A stretch of 49,075 nt of DNA from Lindgomyces ingoldianus (Eukaryota > Ascomycota > Dothideomycetes > Pleosporales > Lindgomycetaceae), in the NCBI RefSeq assembly GCF_010093535.1, contig NW_022985176.1, positions 263,719 through 312,793 of the forward strand, given 5' to 3'. The position numbers were made by a program, and so were the translations under genes. Positions 1 through 9,294 of this stretch are shown here, piece after piece. The notes under the pieces are model-generated. The model did no database searches and was not told where the DNA came from. It saw only the letters and a list, made by a program, of their open reading frames with translations. Position 1 is the first letter of the stretch, and each line of letters starts with the position of its first letter.

Positions 1-43
1 CCCCCCAGCTTCCCTCTCGCCCTTCAAAGGTGCTCCACTCCAT

Positions 44-700
44 CTAGATGGTCTTGTGCGGCGGGCTAGCCTCACGTTTGATAGTTTTGTGTGGTGGGCT
101 AGCAATGGGTTCAGCCTCACGCTTAATTGTCTTGTGGGGAGGGGAGGGATCCCTCTTGATCGTCTTGTGAGGAGGAGACGGGTCCCGCTTGATTGTCTTG
201 TGAGGAGGAGATGGATCCCGTTTGATGGTCTTATGAGGAGGAGATGCCTCCCTCTTGATCGTCTTGTGAGGCGGGCTAGCCTCTGCCTCACGCTTGATAG
301 TCTTGTGCGGCGGGCTAGCATTGGGTTCAGCCTCACGCTTGATAGTCTTGTGAGGTGGGGAAGCCTCGCGTTTGATGGTCTTGTGGGGAGGGGAAGCCTC
401 GCGTTTGATGGTCTTGTGGGGAGGGGAAGCCTCGCGTTTGATGGTCTTGTGAGGAGGGGAAGCCTCGCGTTTGATGGTCTTGTGGGGAGGGGAAGCCTCC
501 CGCTTGATAGTCTTGTGCGGCGGACTCCTCTTCCATGGAGCCCGCTTGATTGTCTTATGGGGCGGGCTGGCTACCGCTTCGCGCTTGGAGAATTCGACCG
601 CATCACGTGCAACCACACCTGCTGCCGCCGGGGCAGGAATGACGGCCGCCGAGACGGTACTAGCAAGAAGAGTGCTTGCAAAGAGCGCGGAGAACTTCAT
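44..700 (-). CDS. Secreted multi-copy peptide precursor (15 x SPPHKTI), Kex2/Ste13-type processing
   Basis: A 218-aa single-exon protein. Residues 1-18 form a signal peptide (hydrophobic core, cleavage after VSA). A short pro-segment runs to the first Lys-Arg at 39-40. The rest is 15 copies of the heptapeptide SPPHKTI. Every copy but the last, which ends at the stop codon, is followed by Lys-Arg, the Kex2 signal. After the KR come spacers EA, EAEA, DP, EAVA, EAEPNA or EAEPIA, all chains of X-Ala/X-Pro dipeptides as trimmed by Ste13-type aminopeptidase. The Pro at position 3 of the core should stop further trimming. One spacer, APWKR, is aberrant. Core codons vary between copies but all changes are synonymous. 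The architecture is that of alpha-pheromone precursors and Kex2-processed repeat proteins. The core has no Tyr, Trp or Cys, so it matches neither the usual filamentous alpha-pheromone nor UstYa-cyclised dikaritins. No modifying enzyme is seen nearby, but the window edge is 43 bp away. Confidence 0.9.
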   Translation of the reverse strand: MKFSALFASTLLASTVSAAVIPAPAAAGVVARDAVEFSKREAVASPPHKTIKRAPWKRSPPHKTIKREASPPHKTIKREASPPHKTIKREASPPHKTIKREASPPHKTIKREASPPHKTIKREAEPNASPPHKTIKREAEASPPHKTIKREASPPHKTIKRDPSPPHKTIKRDPSPPHKTIKRDPSPPHKTIKREAEPIASPPHKTIKREASPPHKTI

Positions 701-806
701 GGTTGAAGATTGAAGGAGAACGAAGGATGTATGGAAAGGAAGTGAAGAATTTTTGAAGAGATTTGAGTGTCAAGGTCTAGTTCTCGGTCGGTGGGAGTCT
801 ATGGGC

Positions 807-812
807 TTTATA
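807..812 (-). promoter_or_regulatory. TATA box of the peptide precursor gene
   Basis: TATAAA reads on the minus strand 107 bp upstream of the precursor ATG, a usual distance for a fungal TATA promoter. Position and motif are the only evidence. Confidence 0.45.
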
Positions 813-1172
813 TTCACGTCGCAACCTCTAGAATTCAACAACCCCCGACACATCGTTGGTCCCGCACTGGCCGACCAAAAGTACACAGCTGCATCAGACG
901 CTTCCTCCTGATTCACTCGTCGCTAGTAAGTTCTCACATCTTAGGCAAGGCACTACCGCGTGACCGCAGGATCATGAAGGCGCAGTCAGTATCCAAAGTT
1001 TCGACTCTCTCTCGGTGCGAGCGCCCTGACAACATCCTCGCCTGGGGATTGCAGGCTTGCTATTGGGTGACGTCGCATACCGAAGGAACTAATTGTTGGA
1101 CCAACCTTGCCACTCTTTACTTGAACTCGTACAAGGTCTTGTGTTGCATTACCGGAATTAGCAAATTTGCGA

Positions 1173-1180
1173 TATAAAAG
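1173..1180 (+). promoter_or_regulatory. Candidate TATA box upstream of the kinase gene
   Basis: TATAAAAG on the plus strand, followed by a CT-rich stretch at 1196-1206 as at many fungal transcription starts. It lies about 430 bp before the annotated ATG, which implies a long leader or an unrecognised 5' exon. Confidence 0.35.
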
Positions 1181-1610
1181 GGTTGGCATCGTCGTCTTTC
1201 TTTCACCAAACTCAGGACTAAAGTGGCGAGGGCCGGGGTTTGGCACAGCCTGGTGGAGTTCGGGGATTATCTTCTCGTTGGAATTGGACCGTGTCGTCTC
1301 GGATGATTCCGAGGTTCGAAGACCACTACTTGGGGTTATGAGTTAGTAGTCTGATGCTTGCTTACTTCAGCTTTATGCATCAATCTTATATGTTCAGATA
1401 CGTGCTCACGCTCTCTGTGGCTCTGATTATATTGGCTTATGCGGTTTTGGGGCTAACCTCATCGTCCTCAGGGAAGGGTCGGGTACCTCGCACCATTGTT
1501 CAGACAGAAATCGGTGGCCATTTACACCGCCTCGCCAGACACAAAAACATCTAGAACAACTAGAACAACTAGAGCAAGTCGGCGGAAAACTCACAACTGC
1601 CGTCGATATC

Positions 1611-2824
1611 ATGTGGGGCGTCAAGGTATTTTTCGTAATCCCTGGACTCCTGTTATTACATTCTCGCCCAACAAAATCACTGCCCTGGCAATGCAATTCC
1701 AAAAATGTCGACCTCAACCATATCTACAACATTCTAGCCTCTGAGCAATCGGCTCGCCATCCAAAATCAAGCATCGGCGAAGGCACCGATGGGCAAATCT
1801 ACCTCTCAACGAATTCCCTCGCGATCAAGCGCTTCGACCCCGAACACACTCTCCCCCACGAAATCCATCACGAATACTGGATAGGTCATTCGCTCTCGCA
1901 TCAAAATCTAGCTCGGTCGCATTCACTACATTACGATAATGACAGCAGTGCCTGGGTTATGGAAATGGATCATGTCCCTTTTCCGCTGTTGGATCTTTTG
2001 GATCATGATACCTGGCAGGGGAGAGAATGGGGGTTTGAAGAGGTTAGTTGCTTATTTAGACAGGTTCTGGATGCTGTTGCATATATGCATTCCCGTGGAC
2101 TTGCGCATCGCGATCTTAAGATTGAGAATATTATGGTGGCGCGGAATGGTGTTGTTAAAGTCATCGATTTTGGCAGTGCTGCAGCGTCGCGAGATTTACT
2201 GCAGACTAGCGACATCTGCAGTACACAAGGGAATGGTATGTTGGTTTGTCTACGCCTCATTTTTGAACTATGGGAATTTTAACATGTCTCTTAGTTCCTT
2301 CTCATCACAAAATCTTCAGCATAGAAAACTGGGTCGGCACACCCATCACCATGGCGCCTGAAACTCATGGAGAATCTTTCTACGATCTCGAAGCCGCCGA
2401 TGTATGGTCCTTAGGAATCATCTTCGTCAGGTTGTGGCTTGGCGTCTACCCTTGGGAACCTGAGGCAATTGTCGGTGCGCTTTCAGAAGATGAAACATTC
2501 CAGGAGTACGTGCGCGAAAGGGAGGAGGATCTCGATTGTGGCGCTGAAGGTCTGCATGAAGTTCGACATGCAAGTAGGTTCACCCTCCCAGCACTGACCA
2601 CAAGAATCACAATGTGCTTTGTTCTTAAGAACATGGCGATATTCGTGGTACTGCACAGGCGCTAACTCCATATAGACATGGAGCTCAACCCCGAGTCAGA
2701 CACTCTCCTTTGCCAAATCCCGGAACTGGCTAGGGACGTCGTTGCAAGCATGTTGGAGGTGAATCCCGACCAGCGAATCACCTTGGACAGAGTCATGGCC
2801 AGCGCATTGGCGCACACGACTTAA
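1611..2824 (+). CDS. Serine/threonine protein kinase, three exons
   Basis: Exons 1611-2235, 2295-2573 and 2676-2824 join in frame to a 350-aa kinase. Intron 1 (59 nt) is GTATGT...TTAG; intron 2 (102 nt) is GTAGGT with branch GCTAAC and ATAG. All core motifs are present: glycine loop GEGTDG (56-61), AIK lysine (K73), HRDLK (166-170), DFG (186-188), GTPITMAPE ending at 231, DVWSLG, and a C-lobe motif MLEVNPDQR in exon 3. It should therefore be catalytically competent. The [15 protein letters not shown] block resembles fungal Npr/Hal-type kinases, but that subfamily call is inference. The N-terminus has a hydrophobic stretch (residues 5-17). The start is uncertain because the frame is open upstream; 1611 is the first ATG in frame. 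No substrate can be inferred. Confidence 0.85.
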
Positions 2825-4349
2825 CAACTATCACAACAATCATCTTTCTAAACTCGCACATTAAACGCATATTTTCTAGCAACAGATGTCGAAACTAGAT
2901 TGTGGAGCGATGTCCCCGGGCGTAAAGCTTGTTGTCAAGGACATGTCTTACATTGGGGCCGTTTTCGGAAGTAGGGGCTTTACCCCAGTGAAGGTAATCC
3001 TGCGACATCAGCTAGGCTGAAGGATTTGCATTCCAGGAAGCCCCACCGTTCGATGCATTGTGGTCGACAAGGGTAGAGAGTCCTTTAGGCATACACGCGT
3101 GCTAGTTTTCCTTTTTTGGCGATGCGAGGGCGAGAAGTAGGAGTGACATTTGGCCATGATTCTCGAACAATACCAAGTTGGATCAATGTACTTTGGATTC
3201 ATGCCAAGAGCACTTCACTGCCAGTTATCCAGCGCCTGGACTTTCACTTTAATTTGCTTTTCGTATGTGCAGCGTTGGGGATCTTGGAAAGCACTCATGT
3301 CAACTCTCTTGCACTGCATCGCGAGCACAAAGACAGTGCACAAGGAATGAAGGAAGCTTGGAATAAAACAGGACCTAATAGAAGGATCCGATAAGAATAC
3401 GAAACCGTATGCATACTTCATTCTCCATATATCGAAGGATCTAAGTTAGAACTAGAGCACCATATGTCCACTGCCCTTACCCGTCTTTCATGCTTCTTGC
3501 ATCCGTGATTTTCAACCTCGAATCGCACGGGGACAAACGCATCATGTGTGCGCGAAGGTGTTATTCCTTCTGGTTGTTGCTTTCCAGATGCGGGAGTGTC
3601 TGGGAATGAAACTACCGCCGTCAATCTAACTCTAACGATTTCTTAAATGTCTCTCTTTTACTAAAACTCAACCTAATCAGCAGAAAAAAATGAATCCTGA
3701 GATGAATCCTTAAATAAATGCAAGCGTGCGCAGCGAGTTGGCGAGCGATCTAGTAGTGCGCATTCAGTCTCGCCCAACATGCTAGCGGTATAGTTTGGCC
3801 AGGATTTGACGGGACTCTGTAGCCCCCCTCGAGTAGCGAAGGTTCTGAATGCAATGGAGACCGGTTAATATGGATTCGGTCAGATAGTAGGATGAAGTAT
3901 AGCAGTCTCGATAGTTCGGTAGGCGATGTCGATGACGATGTGGGCAGTGGTGTGTGGGGAGAAGCCGTACTATTGCTAGGGCTACATGTTAGTGCAGCAC
4001 AATTGAGGAGCTTATCGTACGCTCGAGGCCTTCACGATTGACGAGAGGGGATAAAGTCTGAGCTTAAGTAGGCCAAATAAGTAAACAGAGTTATGACAAA
4101 ATGTGGTGGGTTCAATATCAAACCGTGCTAGGGTTCCATGGTAGATGGAGAACATCAAACCACGTGCATGCTTTCTTCAAGTGAGTTCGGCCCGAGTTCT
4201 CCACGCTGGAGAAGAAACTAGCGGCGTACCTTCCCCGCGATCTGTCTCTTTCCTCGTTCCCTTCTCAGTTTCTTCTTCAAAAAACCGACCTTTTCTGGGC
4301 TTATGTATACTGATTAATTTCCGAAATCATCTATCATCAAGTAAATCCA
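2825..4349. other. Intergenic region, no gene recognised
   Basis: Base-balanced sequence with only short open frames that lack recognisable domains or splice structure. I see no repeat or RNA gene here. It separates the kinase 3' end from the tRNA. Confidence 0.5.
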
Positions 4350-4367
4350 GCATCGGTGGTTTAGTGG

Positions 4368-4419
4368 GTTAGTGCATCCTCTCTCTCGGCAATCGCACAC
4401 TTGAACTGACGGCTCCTAG
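4368..4419 (+). other. Intron 1 of tRNA-Gly, D-loop, spliceosomal-type signals
   Basis: 52 nt, 5' GTTAGT, branch-like CTGAC at 4406-4410, 3' CTCCTAG. The branch A lies 10 nt before the final G. It interrupts the D-loop right after the conserved GG (positions 18-19). A one-base shift of both boundaries gives the same tRNA, so GT-AG is compatible here rather than forced. Confidence 0.85.
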
Positions 4420-4460
4420 TAAAATTAGCCGTTGCCATCGGCTAGCCCCGGGTTCGATTC

Positions 4461-4512
4461 GTAAGTCTTTCGAGATTTATCACTCGAAATGTGAGTTCTG
4501 ACGTTTAAGTAG
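4461..4512 (+). other. Intron 2 of tRNA-Gly, T-stem, spliceosomal-type signals
   Basis: 52 nt, 5' GTAAGT, branch-like CTGAC at 4498-4502, 3' AAGTAG. The boundaries are unambiguous: only an exact GT...AG excision restores the T-stem CCGGG/CCCGG and the acceptor strand. Same length and same branch motif as intron 1, with branch-to-AG spacing of 10 versus 11 nt, but otherwise unlike it in sequence. Confidence 0.88.
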
Positions 4513-4536
4513 CCGGCCGATGCAGAACATCGTCTC

Positions 4537-4552
4537 TTTTTTTTTTTTTTTT
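4537..4552 (+). terminator. RNA polymerase III terminator of the tRNA-Gly gene
   Basis: A run of 16 Ts beginning 12 nt downstream of the tRNA 3' end, and the first run of four or more Ts after the A box. Confidence 0.85.
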
Positions 4553-5395
4553 AGCTTTTTTGTTGATAATAAATTTAGGGGTTTTTGCTATTAAAAAAAA
4601 AGAAAAAGAATTTACATCATCCAGATAGAGAGAAAGATAACATGAAGTTAAAGTATTTGATGTGGCGCTATTAGAGCCAAAGGCATTGAATGATTTTTAG
4701 ATGGACCCATGGGCTTTGTGGGCTCCAGGGGGTGCGGAAGCGAGGTGCGTTATTCGTTCAGTCGGTGAAATGACCTGAAAGCACGGGATTGAAGGATGAA
4801 CAAATCTTACAGGGCAGCAGCCATAGTGGTTGCAAGGGCCATTAAGATGCACGGTGATGAAGGTTGTCTTTGTGGAAGTGTGGGGACGTTTGGAGGTAAG
4901 ATGACTAATGTCGGATCCACGTGATAAACACTCTACTCTGGGGTTCTTCCCAATTTGCTCAGTTCATTGCAAGTTCCAGCACTTCGAAAATACGATTTTT
5001 GCGTTATCTTTTGGGGTGTTCTACAGCCGGAATAAGATGAACCTAAATAAATGGATGTCATGGTACTGTCAGCGAACTTGTGGATTAGCTTCCTAAGCAA
5101 TGCACAGAACACAATTGTAATTTGAAGTCAAGGAAACAGAATTATATTTAGGTCCCGGGTTAGGGGCGGCATCATAGGATAACAGAGAACTAAGCCAGGG
5201 CAGAATGGAGGCAGGGATGTGCCGAGCAGTAGATTAGGGCCAGCCCAATCTACAAGCCCATGTGTCCATCTAGGCTCGTCCTGCTCGTTTCGCATTCGAG
5301 GTGAGATGAATGTCATTAAAGAACCAGAGAAAATACATGCGCGTTCGAAATCTCTCAAACATGGAAATCCTACATCAGGGCGGGCAAGCATTCGG
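4553..5395. other. Intergenic region, no gene recognised
   Basis: Begins with A/T-rich low-complexity sequence (T runs, then an A-rich run at about 4592-4610), then ordinary base composition. No supported gene. The 3' end of the convergent minus-strand gene abuts it. Confidence 0.5.
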
Positions 5396-8034
5396 TTAGG
5401 CGTTCGACTTCCGCTTTCCCAGTCTTCTGCTCGACCTGCGGGTCGCATTTTTCGGCCGAAGTGAAGGTTTATTCGTCGACACTGGATCCAGAGGACGGCA
5501 AACTTGTTCAAGCTCCTTTGCAAATTCAGGCTTCAGTTTCCAGGCTCCAGTAGATTCGCCATAAGGAGACCGCAGCACCCAGTCCTTCCATTTCTGAAAG
5601 ACTTTCACTGCCTGCTTCTCGGGTATTTGAAACCACTCCTTGTGTTCCTTGCCGCACCCTTCGCACGTCATTACCATCCGGATATCCTTGAATTCGGCAT
5701 GGATGAGTTTCTCCACGCGGCTGACATGAGGTATATGAACAAGTTCTCCTGCCCAGGAGCGTTTGTGGAGTTGGTATTCCTGCTTACATTGTTTGGCCCA
5801 TTGCTTCAAACGCCGATCCACGTTTTTCGTAAATCCAATCTTCAGGAGGCCGAACTTACCCTTCAACCAGAAGATGTAAATGTATCCAGATTTCAATTCA
5901 TATGCCGAAAGATCTTTCCGGACAAGATCTTGCAGGACTTGACCGACGGATTTTCCCTTAGTCCTCTTTGGTTGCCAGGGCCGAAATTTTCCAAGTGGGG
6001 AAATGTCCCATGTAGAAGGCAGTGAAGATTGATGTCTAAGCGGTATATCCGAAAGAGGCGAATCCGCAACATCTGGTTCCGACGGCTCGTTATTTTTCAA
6101 AGCTTTGGTTTTCTGAGCAGCTAGTGGAATCGAGGTCACGCGTTTCACAGGGTTCGGTCTCTGAATCGGAACTTCGACATGGCTGTCTTCCCTATCTTGC
6201 GACTTCACTTCTGCCTTAGATCTAGGAGGGGTTGTTATATCACTGGGGGTTTCCGCTTTCTTCTCGGCCTTGATAGCAGAACTGGTGTCGCACTCGGAAG
6301 TTTCAGTTGAGTTGCAGATGATTTCGGCCCAAGTAGTGAAATCATCCCAGCTGACGCTACCGACTGTAATAAGGGAATGATTCGACTTAGATTCTAATCG
6401 TCTTTGAACCAACTCTTTGATCGTCTCAGATCGTTTTTCAGCAGGCTTAATATGAACACCGCACAGGGCTGACGCAGTGAGACTAGCAAGCCAGGTTAGA
6501 AATGACTGGTAGTCATGTTGTTTGTGTGCTTTCGTTAGGGCATTAAGGAACTGCTGAACGTTTTTGGGTCCCTTTGCCGCATTCCCACACTTCTGCCCCG
6601 GCTTCTTTGGTAAAGAGGCGACACATTTACTGGCATCATCAGCGATCCTTTGATGGATCTCAAAAGGGATAATACACCCCAGCACCGCCTTGGAGGCTGC
6701 CGAGACTGTGGGCTTTTCTGTTGGTGTGGAAATCCCCGTTATCTGTAGTTCTTCTGCGGTGGCCGTTTCGGGTTTAATGTAGGCATCGTGACGAATATCC
6801 AGCTTTATCTTGCAAATAGTATCAGCCCATGTAAGGAATGAGGCATGCTCGGAGTCGAACAAGACGTTTGAAGATGCAATGGTGAAGCTTTCTGCTTGCA
6901 AAAGCTGTTGAACGAACCTCTCTAGGCTCCCAAATTTTCCTGGCTGCATGGCTGAGTTGTAGTGAGTCCCACAGAGAACCGATGCAAGCAATGATTCAAG
7001 ATTGGGGAGAAAAGTGTCATAGTCCTTGTGTGCAAGGCTGCTGGCCAGTATCTCCAGCCGTTTTGGAGCCTCCTGCGATTTTTTCGCTGACCAATTGCAC
7101 TTTTTACCGGGGTTCTTGACAAGTGAAGCAATACATTTCCTGGAATTGATGCTCTCGGAGATTCTTTGCTGCAATGTGGACGGCAAGATAGCATCAAGGA
7201 CATCGCTAAAAGCAGCTCTCCCTTTTCGGGTCGCAGTTACTCTTTTCCCAGCCCCCTGACTAACGCTTGTTGTATGCCCATTTGTCGTTGCAGTGGTGGT
7301 ATCCTCGTTGCTCTGGAATCCGAATGAGGTATTTGGTTGACTGTAGAACTCCAACTTGGAAGCCTTAATAAGGGCCTCACGAGCAGCATTCACTGTTTCA
7401 CGTTATCAAAATAGAGTAATGCACACGCTGTGGGTGGCGTACAATTTTCCATTGGTAGTGTTGCGTTTCGGAATATCTTTTTATATCGAGGTTCACACGG
7501 CTCGCTATGTTGCCCGTGAGTGCTGTATTCTCCTGTAGCATCTCCAACAACACCCGGTGTAGATTTTATCTTTCGTGCTAATGGAGACTCAGGGCTGGCG
7601 ACCAACGTCGGCTTGTCGCTCCCTCTAGTGGTCGGGGGTGTGATTGGAGTGCTGGTGCTCCATAAGACACCTTTGTCGTTTGACCTAATGCTACTCCATG
7701 TATCATCCGCGAATGGGTCAGAGGACGTCCCGCTTTCCACTGATGTCGCCGAGCCGTGAGTCGTGTATCCTGGTCGAGTCGATTTCGGGGTTTCAGGGGG
7801 CACTATCTCGACAATCCTGACGACTGAGGTCGCTTTCATATTCATGGCGTTGGAGGATGTGAGCCCTCCGTCTGCTTCGTTGTCCGGGGGAGACTTCTGT
7901 GATTCATGAGGCATTATGGCATCCTTGGAAGAAGATGTGGGGCACTCTGCACGTTGCCAAGCCGGAGAATCCTGGGGGTTTTCTGAGGTCCGTTCTATGA
8001 GATGTTGATCTTCGGTATAGTATGAGACCTGCAT
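5396..8034 (-). CDS. T5orf172/MUG113-domain protein with duplicated Cys-containing module, two exons
   Basis: Exon 1 (8034-7443) and exon 2 (7392-5396) join in frame across a 50-nt intron (GTACGC, branch-like GATAAC, 3' ACAG) to an 862-aa protein. The exon 2 frame has no ATG at its 5' end, which supports the splice. Residues 1-197 are Ser/Thr/Pro-rich and probably disordered. Residues of about 264-391 and 434-558 are two copies of one module: C-[IV]-AS...KxPGxKC, a helical LxxLxxxL segment, LCGxH, then FxTWAxxIC. Residues of about 695-805 match the T5orf172 (GIY-YIG-related) fold: GYIYIFW, then LLKIGFT, RRLKQW, a histidine-rich segment HIPHVSRVEKLIHAEF, and CEGCGKEHKEWF. The tail (846-859) is basic, a likely NLS. 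Fungal proteins of this class are mostly uncharacterised, with a DNA-binding or nuclease-like role proposed. Family call good; function unknown. Confidence 0.85.
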
Positions 8035-8820
8035 TATTTGTGACTCTTGATCAACGTATAACGGTCAAATCGTATGAGGCTGAAGAAGATGTGGTGTGTG
8101 AGATCCCACAGAAAGCAGACGAGTTACCTTAAGAAGATTGTAAAGTAGGCTATAGGGCCTATATATGACTGCTTCTTTGGCATACAAGGGACTCGACGCA
8201 CGGAGCCCCGCGAACTCCGCCTGACTTCGCAAATGGGCAGTGTATGCCAGGAGCCGCCCTACCCATACCCTTCGATCAACTAGGAAGGTGAGACGACGGC
8301 CAATTAAGGTTTCGTGATCTCCATGGATAAACACCACGTGCCATAGAGAGACACCGCAATCCTAGGACGGTAGACATGCGTGACAAGTTCTCCCCTGACT
8401 TTCAACTTAGTTTAAGCGTTCCTAACGTCCCGCGAACGTCCCGAGAACGATGCACTCTATAGTAGCAGTAATTTCATCGAGCCTTTCAGGCTGCTTGCTG
8501 GGATAGAATGATTCGTGTCTCCCCCTGTTTCCGCTGGGGTGGTGAACCGCTGGGGGTGAACATACTGTGCTGTGCCACGCACATGCAGTTTCGAAACCAA
8601 AGGAGGTTCGGTGCACCAAAAATAGCGAGACGGCAGCAATTTATTCTCGAACCCATGGAGAGTGGCTTTCCTAACCCATGCAACCGTTTATAACCTTACT
8701 TAGAAAAGGGTTGCACTGTCATAAAGTAGATACTACTCGCCCCACGCGCCAAGGTGAGGGTCCCCTTGGCCCTCCCGGGTTCAACCAGAAAACCAGGTTC
8801 AACATAAAAGCGTCGCAAAG
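8035..8820. other. Upstream region of the T5orf172 gene and edge of the base-balanced segment
   Basis: No recognisable gene. An open frame at 8065-8337 (minus) has no domain and no typical coding character. A B-box-like GGTTCAACC near 8750 has no tRNA around it. GC content falls sharply after about 8,820. Confidence 0.5.
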
Positions 8821-9294
8821 AGCTACCTTAAAGCTTAGGAAAGCGTACAACGAATAGATATTTTTAAGGGGTTTCGCTTAGGTATGTAAAATACATGTAT
8901 TTTAGCTAGTCTTTAGCATTTGCCACTGAATAATTTCAAAGGGGGGAGGTGTTAGGGGCACTGCTGAAGGCTCTGCTTCCGCAGATACCCTAGCCTTTAG
9001 ATCACCCTTTTAATCCTTATTGTTACGCGCAATAACAGCTTCGCACGCATCTTTTACGCAGAGCGTCCTACTAGCTTGTACAACACAACAATTAGTTTGT
9101 TGTTGTTTTATATGTAATTTTAACACTTATGTAATCTCTTTAAGATTACGCTTAGCAACCTTAAGCTTATGCGTCTGTAACACTGTCGCCTTTATATAGC
9201 AATTAAAGTAAGATTTCTTAACCTCTTCTTGCTTATAGTAACATATAATAATCTCCTTAGCTAGCTAGATTATTAAGGGAGCGTTATAGAGCGT
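8821..9294. other. Transition into AT-rich DNA, unassigned repeat relic
   Basis: Composition shifts to the TpA-rich state of the rest of the window. The stretch at about 8,940-9,240 keeps patches of higher GC (around 8960-9070) and may be a decayed 3' part of a transposon read on the minus strand, but I cannot match it to a family. Confidence 0.4.

What the first reader, a model, noticed from the sequence alone, without database searches (positions are those of the whole stretch)
4350..4524. tRNA-Gly(GCC) gene carrying two 52-nt spliceosomal-type introns, in the D-loop and T-stem
Seen: removing 4368-4419 and 4461-4512 leaves a 71-nt tRNA with acceptor 7/7, anticodon 5/5 and T-stem 5/5 paired, U33, anticodon GCC, A box intact, B box 10/11, no T4 run before the 16-T terminator. 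Both inserts are GT...TAG, both 52 nt, both with CTGAC 10-11 nt before the end. Known: nuclear tRNA introns in fungi sit at 37/38 and are cut by tRNA endonuclease; U6 snRNA (also pol III) and lichen-fungal rDNA can carry spliceosome-type introns. Inferred: a pol III tRNA transcript spliced by the spliceosome. I know of no described case in a fungal nuclear tRNA. Standard tRNA finders would miss or mis-score it.
Basis: partly seen in the sequence, partly recalled or inferred. Interest (0 to 1): 0.96.

Follow-up and report, generated by a model that had tools for sequence, protein, structure and literature searches.

The report
tRNA genes interrupted by spliceosomal introns
In the genome of the freshwater fungus Lindgomyces ingoldianus, at least a dozen transfer-RNA genes, including the one in this window, are cut by short inserts that carry the sequence signals of messenger-RNA introns, so the spliceosome would likely have to cut them out to make working tRNAs, a job that our literature searches did not find described.

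Summary
Removing 4368-4419 and 4461-4512 leaves a 71-nt tRNA-Gly(GCC) identical, 71 of 71, to an intronless copy elsewhere in the same genome. A third copy has only the second insert, at the same site. Between the two insert-bearing copies 0 of 71 exon bases differ, against 20 of 55 columns of insert 2. It is not isolated. In this genome (Lindgomyces ingoldianus, Pleosporales) I found 13 tRNA genes for 10 amino acids with 15 inserts outside the normal 37/38 site: 13 GT-AG, 1 GC-AG, 1 GG-AG. All 15 have a YTRAY branch motif with 9-15 bases after the branch A, as in mRNA introns. None of 19 ordinary 37/38 introns is GT-AG. Seven of the 13 also carry a 37/38 intron, so their transcripts would likely need two splicing machines. 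Best explanation: pol III pre-tRNAs spliced by the spliceosome before the normal tRNA pathway. This is inferred from sequence; no RNA data were available. Ten searches of open-access papers showed no such case; a 2017 paper names U6 and U3 as the only small structured RNAs often interrupted by introns (PMC5832005).

The parts
4350..4367 (+). tRNA-Gly(GCC) exon 1: acceptor 5' strand and D arm up to G19; holds the whole A box (4357-4367)
   Evidence: identical to the intronless copy C7:148355-148425; A box
4368..4419 (+). spliceosome-type intron 1 at tRNA position 19/20, 52 nt, GTTAGT...TAG, branch motif CTGAC 4406-4410 (A 4409)
   Evidence: absent from both other Gly(GCC) copies; signals
4420..4460 (+). 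exon 2: D-stem 3' strand, anticodon arm (anticodon GCC 4434-4436), variable loop, T stem 5' strand and T loop to C61
   Evidence: 41 nt identical in all three copies
4451..4461 (+). B box GGTTCGATTCG, 10/11; its last base is the first base of intron 2
4461..4512 (+). spliceosome-type intron 2 at tRNA position 61/62, 52 nt, GTAAGT...TAG, branch motif CTGAC 4498-4502 (A 4501)
   Evidence: same site in copy C7:109479-109603 (54 nt, 35 of 55 columns identical)
4513..4524 (+). exon 3: T stem 3' strand, acceptor 3' strand, discriminator A
   Evidence: identical in all three copies
4537..4552 (+). run of 16 T, likely pol III terminator

Best explanation
In Lindgomyces ingoldianus at least 13 tRNA genes, this tRNA-Gly(GCC) among them, contain short inserts bearing U2-type spliceosomal intron signals (GT-AG ends, CTRAY-like branch motif), and the spliceosome likely removes them from what would be a pol III pre-tRNA. 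Shown by sequence: the inserts, their signals, the intact cloverleaf after removal, the intronless twin, and constrained exons with a drifting intron. Inferred: pol III transcribes the interrupted gene from the A box, a near-intact B box and the T-run terminator; the spliceosome acts in the nucleus and rebuilds the D and T arms that end processing and exportin-t recognise; genes that also have a 37/38 intron then go through the ordinary tRNA endonuclease and ligase. In the window gene two such introns, at 19/20 and 61/62, would be removed.
For: (1) Three Gly(GCC) copies with 2, 1 and 0 inserts and the same 71 nt; exon differences 0/71 against 20/55 columns of insert 2, Fisher 6e-9. (2) 15 such inserts in 13 genes: 13 GT-AG, 1 GC-AG with a CAG|GCAAGT donor, 1 GG-AG; YTRAY in place in 15 of 15. 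(3) Six mRNA introns of the same genome (3 actin, 2 of an actin-related gene, 1 of the window gene at 5399-7914; borders set by me from protein matches, or from the public gene model for the last) are 50-101 nt with GTRAG or GTACG donors, CTAAC, CTGAC or CTAAT in 5 and TTGAT in 1, and YAG. (4) After removal, acceptor 7/7, T stem 5/5 and anticodon stem 4-5/5 in 13 of 13; ARAGORN makes a call for 15 of 15 genes with inserts removed (2 uncertain genes included; Thr and Phe with a shifted anticodon) and 3 of 15 with them. (5) Interrupted Ser, Phe and Lys genes differ from insert-free paralogues, over 12 acceptor and T-stem pairs each, by 1, 6 and 2 two-sided compensatory changes and 0 broken pairs. 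(6) A DNA query with spliced tRNA-His found only the one gene, split by its insert. (7) Spliceosomal introns in U6 and in fungal U3 genes are established (PMC5832005, passages and section 3.2).
Against: No RNA data: neither spliced tRNA nor lariat was seen. One insert (Leu AAG, 30/31) starts GG. Two further genes are imperfect: Asp C36 is one nt short after GT-AG removal and then has 1 broken pair against its insert-free paralogue; Tyr C6 has no placed YTRAY and an odd G1-C72/C73. Eight of 15 inserts lie inside the B box (53/54, 58/59), and those at 58/59 leave G or A at its conserved C61. Acceptors of His (AAG) and Thr (GAG) are not YAG. The intronless Gly copy could supply the cell. Identical Gly exons could partly reflect gene conversion. 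ARAGORN also makes a call in 180 of 750 random-removal decoys, so its call alone is weak. Common descent of the two Gly insert-2 copies rests on the shared site and a modest score (7 of 500 shuffles reach it); with longer kept ends the pair was not among those passing at 2 of 200.
Confidence: 0.88

Rival explanations
1. The inserts are removed by the tRNA splicing endonuclease at non-canonical sites, as in Cyanidioschyzon merolae and nucleomorphs; the GT-AG look is incidental.
For: Non-canonical tRNA introns in D, T and anticodon arms exist in those eukaryotes (PMC4090602, passages). The sites 30/31 and 53/54 are also used in archaea (same passages).
Against: No insert has a full bulge-helix-bulge: the 4-bp central helix reaches at most 3 of 4 over all equivalent placements of 17 inserts; but 16 eukaryotic 37/38 controls do not reach 4 of 4 either, so that test alone is inconclusive. 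GT-AG ends in 13 of 15 and a placed branch motif in 15 of 15 have no reason under this rival; 0 of 19 ordinary 37/38 introns are GT-AG.
Confidence: 0.05
2. The interrupted genes are pseudogenes; intact copies supply the cell.
For: An intronless Gly(GCC) copy exists, and insert-free Ser(GCT), Lys(CTT) and Phe(GAA) paralogues too. [quoted passage not shown]
Against: Exons of two interrupted Gly copies are 71/71 identical while the intron drifted; two-sided compensatory stem changes in Phe, Lys and Ser; both His(GTG) genes found carry an insert, and a direct search gave no intronless copy of the one queried. Decay looks different in the two relics seen: C16:3987, a mutated Trp-like relic, and C60:187103, a truncated Ser, neither with a GT-AG insert that I could see.
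Confidence: 0.05
3. The inserts are introner-like mobile elements that landed in tRNA genes and are tolerated because the spliceosome removes them; a statement on origin, compatible with the best explanation.
For: Sites recur across isotypes (58/59 in 5 genes, 53/54 in 3). ATC at intron position 9 in 6 of 17 (2 of 2000 shuffles reach this; 5 of 16 and 12 of 2000 without the Gly C7 copy). Introner-like elements are reported in Dothideomycetes (PMC4457414, listing with start of abstract).
Against: Only 3 of 136 intron pairs have at most 2 of 200 shuffles reaching their score, about what chance gives; the ATC signal was noticed after the fact; of 12 intron-like strings from fetched loci 0 have ATC at that place.
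Confidence: 0.2

Closest known systems
Spliceosomal introns in fungal U6 snRNA (pol III) and U3 snoRNA genes
   Same: Short introns, mostly GT-AG with RCTRAC branch motif, inside small structured RNA genes; several sites; genomes with intron-bearing and intronless copies (for U3: PMC5832005, section 3.2 read; U6 from passages and recall).
   Different: Here the host RNA is tRNA, for 10 amino acids, with internal A and B promoter boxes that the intron must leave usable.
Spliceosomal introns in ascomycete 18S rDNA (Cubero 2000, Bhattacharya 2000, both seen only as cited in PMC11889510, passages)
   Same: mRNA-type introns in non-coding RNA genes of ascomycetes
   Different: rRNA host, pol I transcript
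Non-canonical tRNA introns of Cyanidioschyzon merolae, nucleomorphs and archaea (PMC4090602 and PMC3978253, passages)
   Same: Introns in D, T and anticodon arms of tRNA, sometimes with a second intron at 37/38
   Different: Those of C. merolae and archaea are tied to bulge-helix-bulge motifs and tRNA endonuclease; these carry GT, branch and AG signals
Canonical 37/38 tRNA introns of the same genome
   Same: Same genes: 7 of the 13 have one as well
   Different: After position 37; 6-29 nt in the 19 examined, 0 of them GT-AG

Membership tests
U2-type spliceosomal intron | GT (or GC) donor and AG acceptor | tested here: met
   13 GT-AG and 1 GC-AG of 15; 1 GG-AG fails; YAG in 13 of 15
U2-type spliceosomal intron | branch motif YTRAY at 6-36 nt before the acceptor | tested here: met
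   15 of 15 with 9-15 bases after the branch A; of the 2 uncertain genes Asp has it, Tyr not
U2-type spliceosomal intron | length and motifs like mRNA introns of the same genome | tested here: met
   48-86 nt, median 51, against 50-101 nt in 6 mRNA introns
U2-type spliceosomal intron | removal through a lariat by the spliceosome | not testable with these tools
   no RNA data
functional nuclear tRNA gene | complete cloverleaf after intron removal, U33, anticodon | tested here: met
   13 of 13 for acceptor, T and anticodon stems and U33; anticodons of Leu CAG and Leu AAG taken from ARAGORN and by eye because my script misplaced them, those of Thr and Phe from my script because ARAGORN shifted them
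functional nuclear tRNA gene | A box, B box, T-run terminator | tested here: met
   A box matched in place in 11 of 13 (Phe not matched by my expression, His C9 matched off place); GTTCRA present in 13 of 13, but the five 58/59 genes lack C61; T run of at least 4 starting within 12 nt downstream in 13 of 13
functional nuclear tRNA gene | expression and charging | not testable with these tools
   none
tRNA-endonuclease intron | position 37/38 | tested here: not met
   sites 19/20, 24/25, 30/31, variable arm, 53/54, 58/59, 61/62
tRNA-endonuclease intron | bulge-helix-bulge at the junctions | tested here: inconclusive
   no full motif in any insert, but 16 eukaryotic 37/38 controls lack it as well
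introner-like element | near-identical copies at many sites | tested here: inconclusive
   tRNA inserts are not near-identical: 3 of 136 pairs pass a loose test; the genome's mRNA introns could not be compared in bulk
group I or II intron | catalytic core of hundreds of nt | tested here: not met
   48-86 nt; Rfam gathering search of the window gave 0 matches

The most novel reading that the evidence does not exclude
In this fungus the spliceosome is an obligatory tRNA-maturation machine: tRNA genes for ten amino acids, including both His(GTG) genes found, carry U2-type introns at seven different sites, and seven of these genes send their transcripts through two unrelated splicing systems in order, spliceosome first, tRNA endonuclease second, so translation directly depends on spliceosome capacity.
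Probability: 0.65. Interest if true: 0.96.

Novelty: new variant of a known kind. Interest (0 to 1): 0.93.

Why it matters
tRNA introns and mRNA introns are taught as two separate worlds with separate machines. A nuclear genome in which many tRNA genes carry mRNA-type introns would give the spliceosome a new class of essential pol III substrate, put two splicing systems on one transcript, and make open questions testable: how the spliceosome finds a 50-nt intron in an uncapped transcript with a last exon of 12-20 nt, how pol III and TFIIIC tolerate stretched or altered promoters, and how introns invade genes that have no reading frame. It also means that tRNA annotation in such genomes is likely incomplete: of the 13 genes RF00005 listed 4 over its cut-off and ARAGORN called 2 unspliced.

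Tried and rejected
Rejected: (a) that isotypes missing from the RF00005 list must be interrupted. Four Pro genes and one Phe gene with ordinary 37/38 introns were also missed, so absence from that list is no evidence. (b) A shared intron family: weak. (c) My bulge-helix-bulge test as a discriminator: controls fail it too. (d) Asp C36 and Tyr C6 as clean cases: not counted. (e) A depletion of T runs in the inserts: the longest run is 4 in 15 inserts, but I built no fair comparison set. (f) The idea, written in an early note, that inserts avoid the B box: wrong, 8 of 15 lie inside it. (g) The typed tRNA-Phe query found nothing though Phe genes exist; that search needs near-identical letters, which also limits as proof of no other His gene. 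(h) Chance of an intron-like string: a strict motif gave 12 strings, and 6 for the pattern read backwards, in 260,597 fetched bases, known tRNA inserts left out.

Counts: 50 tRNA-like genes were read: 34 RF00005 hits plus 16 others. Of these 13 clean, 2 uncertain, 35 without an insert outside 37/38 that I could see; 2 relics (C60, C16) left out. The sample is not unbiased: the two Leu genes came from a pattern that contains the donor motif (9 hits, of which 5 tRNAs and 4 not), and Gly C7 came from a query that contained both window introns. Of the 52 hits, 4 were already in the RF00005 list, 4 stretches were fetched, and the rest were not read.

Full report
Where it is. The window is C15:263719-312793 of a 68.4-Mb, 99-contig genome. 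The protein at 5399-7402(-) is 100% identical over 660 aa to BDR25DRAFT_314062 of Lindgomyces ingoldianus, on a contig of 1,325,492 bases, the length of C15. This is a Pleosporales ascomycete. The tRNA lies between a protein-kinase ORF (1350-2282) and that T5orf172/MUG113 gene.

Exons 4350-4367, 4420-4460 and 4513-4524 join to a 71-nt tRNA-Gly(GCC) with acceptor, anticodon and T stems paired. The genome has two more Gly(GCC) genes: C7:148355-148425(-), intronless, and C7:109479-109603(+), which lacks insert 1 but has an insert at the very site of insert 2. All three spliced sequences are identical. The two versions of insert 2 agree at 35 of 55 columns; 7 of 500 shuffles with kept ends reach their score, but with longer kept ends the pair was not among those passing at 2 of 200. 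Shared site plus this modest likeness make descent from one intron probable. Exon differences 0/71 against intron differences 20/55 give Fisher 6e-9. Gene conversion of exons could contribute.

It is recurrent. Reading the 34 RF00005 hits, weak hits and pattern hits gave 13 tRNA genes with 15 inserts away from 37/38: Gly C15 (19/20, 61/62), Gly C7 (61/62), Ser-GCT C33 (variable arm), His-GTG C12 and His-GTG C9 (53/54), Thr-TGT C34 (53/54), Arg-TCT C31 (24/25), Lys-CTT C1, Ile-TAT C26, Glu-TTC C14, Leu-CAG C39 and Leu-AAG C8 (58/59), Phe-GAA C21 (30/31, GC-AG), and a second insert in Leu-AAG (30/31, GG-AG). Position numbers are my assignment from the stems. Thr, Arg, Lys, Phe, Ile, Glu and Leu-AAG also have a 37/38 intron. 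Asp C36 and Tyr C6 are possible further cases with flaws.

The inserts look like mRNA introns. Lengths are 48-86 nt, median 51. YTRAY lies in place in 15 of 15, with 9-15 bases after the branch A. Fungal values given in PMC5832005 (section 3.2) are GTRWGT, RCTRAY, YAG and 6-36 nt. Six mRNA introns of this genome show like signals (one has TTGAT in place of CTRAY). Of random 50-mers of window 1-9000, 0.37% are GT..AG and 17% have a placed YTRAY. Alternative placements exist for some inserts; allowing three per insert and taking inserts as independent, the binomial probability of 9 of 10 is 3e-17.

The genes look functional. After removal the acceptor is 7/7 and the T stem 5/5 in 13 of 13. Between interrupted genes and insert-free paralogues, the 12 acceptor and T-stem pairs differ by two-sided compensatory changes only: Phe 6, Lys 2, Ser 1, none broken; the two interrupted His genes differ by 6, none broken; the uncertain Asp gene has 1 broken. 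The acceptor pairs span every insert, and in Lys the T-stem pairs span it too. T runs of at least 4 start within 12 nt downstream in 13 of 13.

Promoter fit. Intron 1 of the window begins right after the A box and intron 2 at the last base of the B box. Eight of the 15 inserts lie inside the B box, but their own ends copy part of it: the three 53/54 introns end in AG and so supply G53 (AGTTCRANNC), and the five 58/59 introns begin GT and read GGTTCGAGTRA, departing at the conserved C61. That this keeps the promoter usable is inference.

Mechanism and order (inferred). Introns in the T or D arm prevent the fold that RNase P, RNase Z and exportin-t recognise (recalled knowledge). Nuclear splicing by the spliceosome is therefore likely first; 37/38 introns would follow by tRNA endonuclease. 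U6 shows that a pol III transcript can carry a spliceosomal intron (Tani and Ohshima 1989, seen only as a reference in PMC5832005).

Literature. Ten searches of the open-access library showed no report of spliceosomal introns in nuclear tRNA genes; 30 of 89 papers were listed and 12 of 76, the others in full. The exact phrase 'spliceosomal introns in tRNA' had 0 papers. [quoted passage not shown] PMC8450103 (tRNAscan-SE 2.0) has 0 occurrences of 'spliceosomal', and the passages on non-canonical introns shown to me concern archaea. Passages of PMC11782384, PMC3978253, PMC4377836 and PMC4494063 held no such case. Subscription journals and preprints are not held, so a report there could have been missed.

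Limits. No RNA, no relatives of this species and no full file of the genome were available; counts are lower bounds from partial searches.

Noticed in passing
window 10001-49075: AT-rich (24-36% GC per 2.5 kb) with TA/AT 1.65-2.28 and (CA+TG)/(AC+GT) 0.49-0.96, and no stop-to-stop ORF of 110 aa from 8065 on: looks like repeats mutated by RIP; the tRNA sits in the 46-51% GC part.
   Followed up: partly
window 44-769 (-): ORF with 15 SPPHKTI units, most followed by KREA or KRDP, behind a signal-like start: looks like a Kex2-processed repeat (pheromone-like) precursor (recalled resemblance); no Pfam match.
   Followed up: no
C36:258520-258720 (L097): tRNA-Asp(GTC) with a GTAGGT...CTAAC...AAG insert near 52/53 whose removal leaves one base too few: possible shifted splice site or decaying copy.
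   Followed up: partly
C6:146110-146325 (L096): tRNA-Tyr(GTA)-like gene with a 61-nt GT-AG insert in the anticodon stem and a 37/38 intron, but G1-C72 and no placed branch motif.
   Followed up: partly
C8:354024-354220 (L105+L100): tRNA-Leu(AAG) with three inserts: GG-AG at 30/31, 37/38 intron, GT-AG at 58/59; the 30/31 site is that of the GC-AG insert of tRNA-Phe C21 as well.
   Followed up: partly
L070, L077, L078, L079, L080: Dispersed repeat with a tRNA-like A box (ATAGTATTAGCTTAGCAGGTAGAGCG, L078 a variant) in 5 places; may be a tRNA-derived SINE.
   Followed up: no
C60:187103-187153 and C16:3987: Truncated Ser tRNA and decayed Trp-like tRNA relics without a GT-AG insert that I could see.
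   Followed up: partly
U6 hits on C38, C6, C20 and others: 12 U6-like loci, 8 over the Rfam cut-off, matches 97-107 nt long, so no insert of this kind inside the matches; scores fall widely (90.8 to 30.4 bits), suggesting pseudogenes.
   Followed up: no
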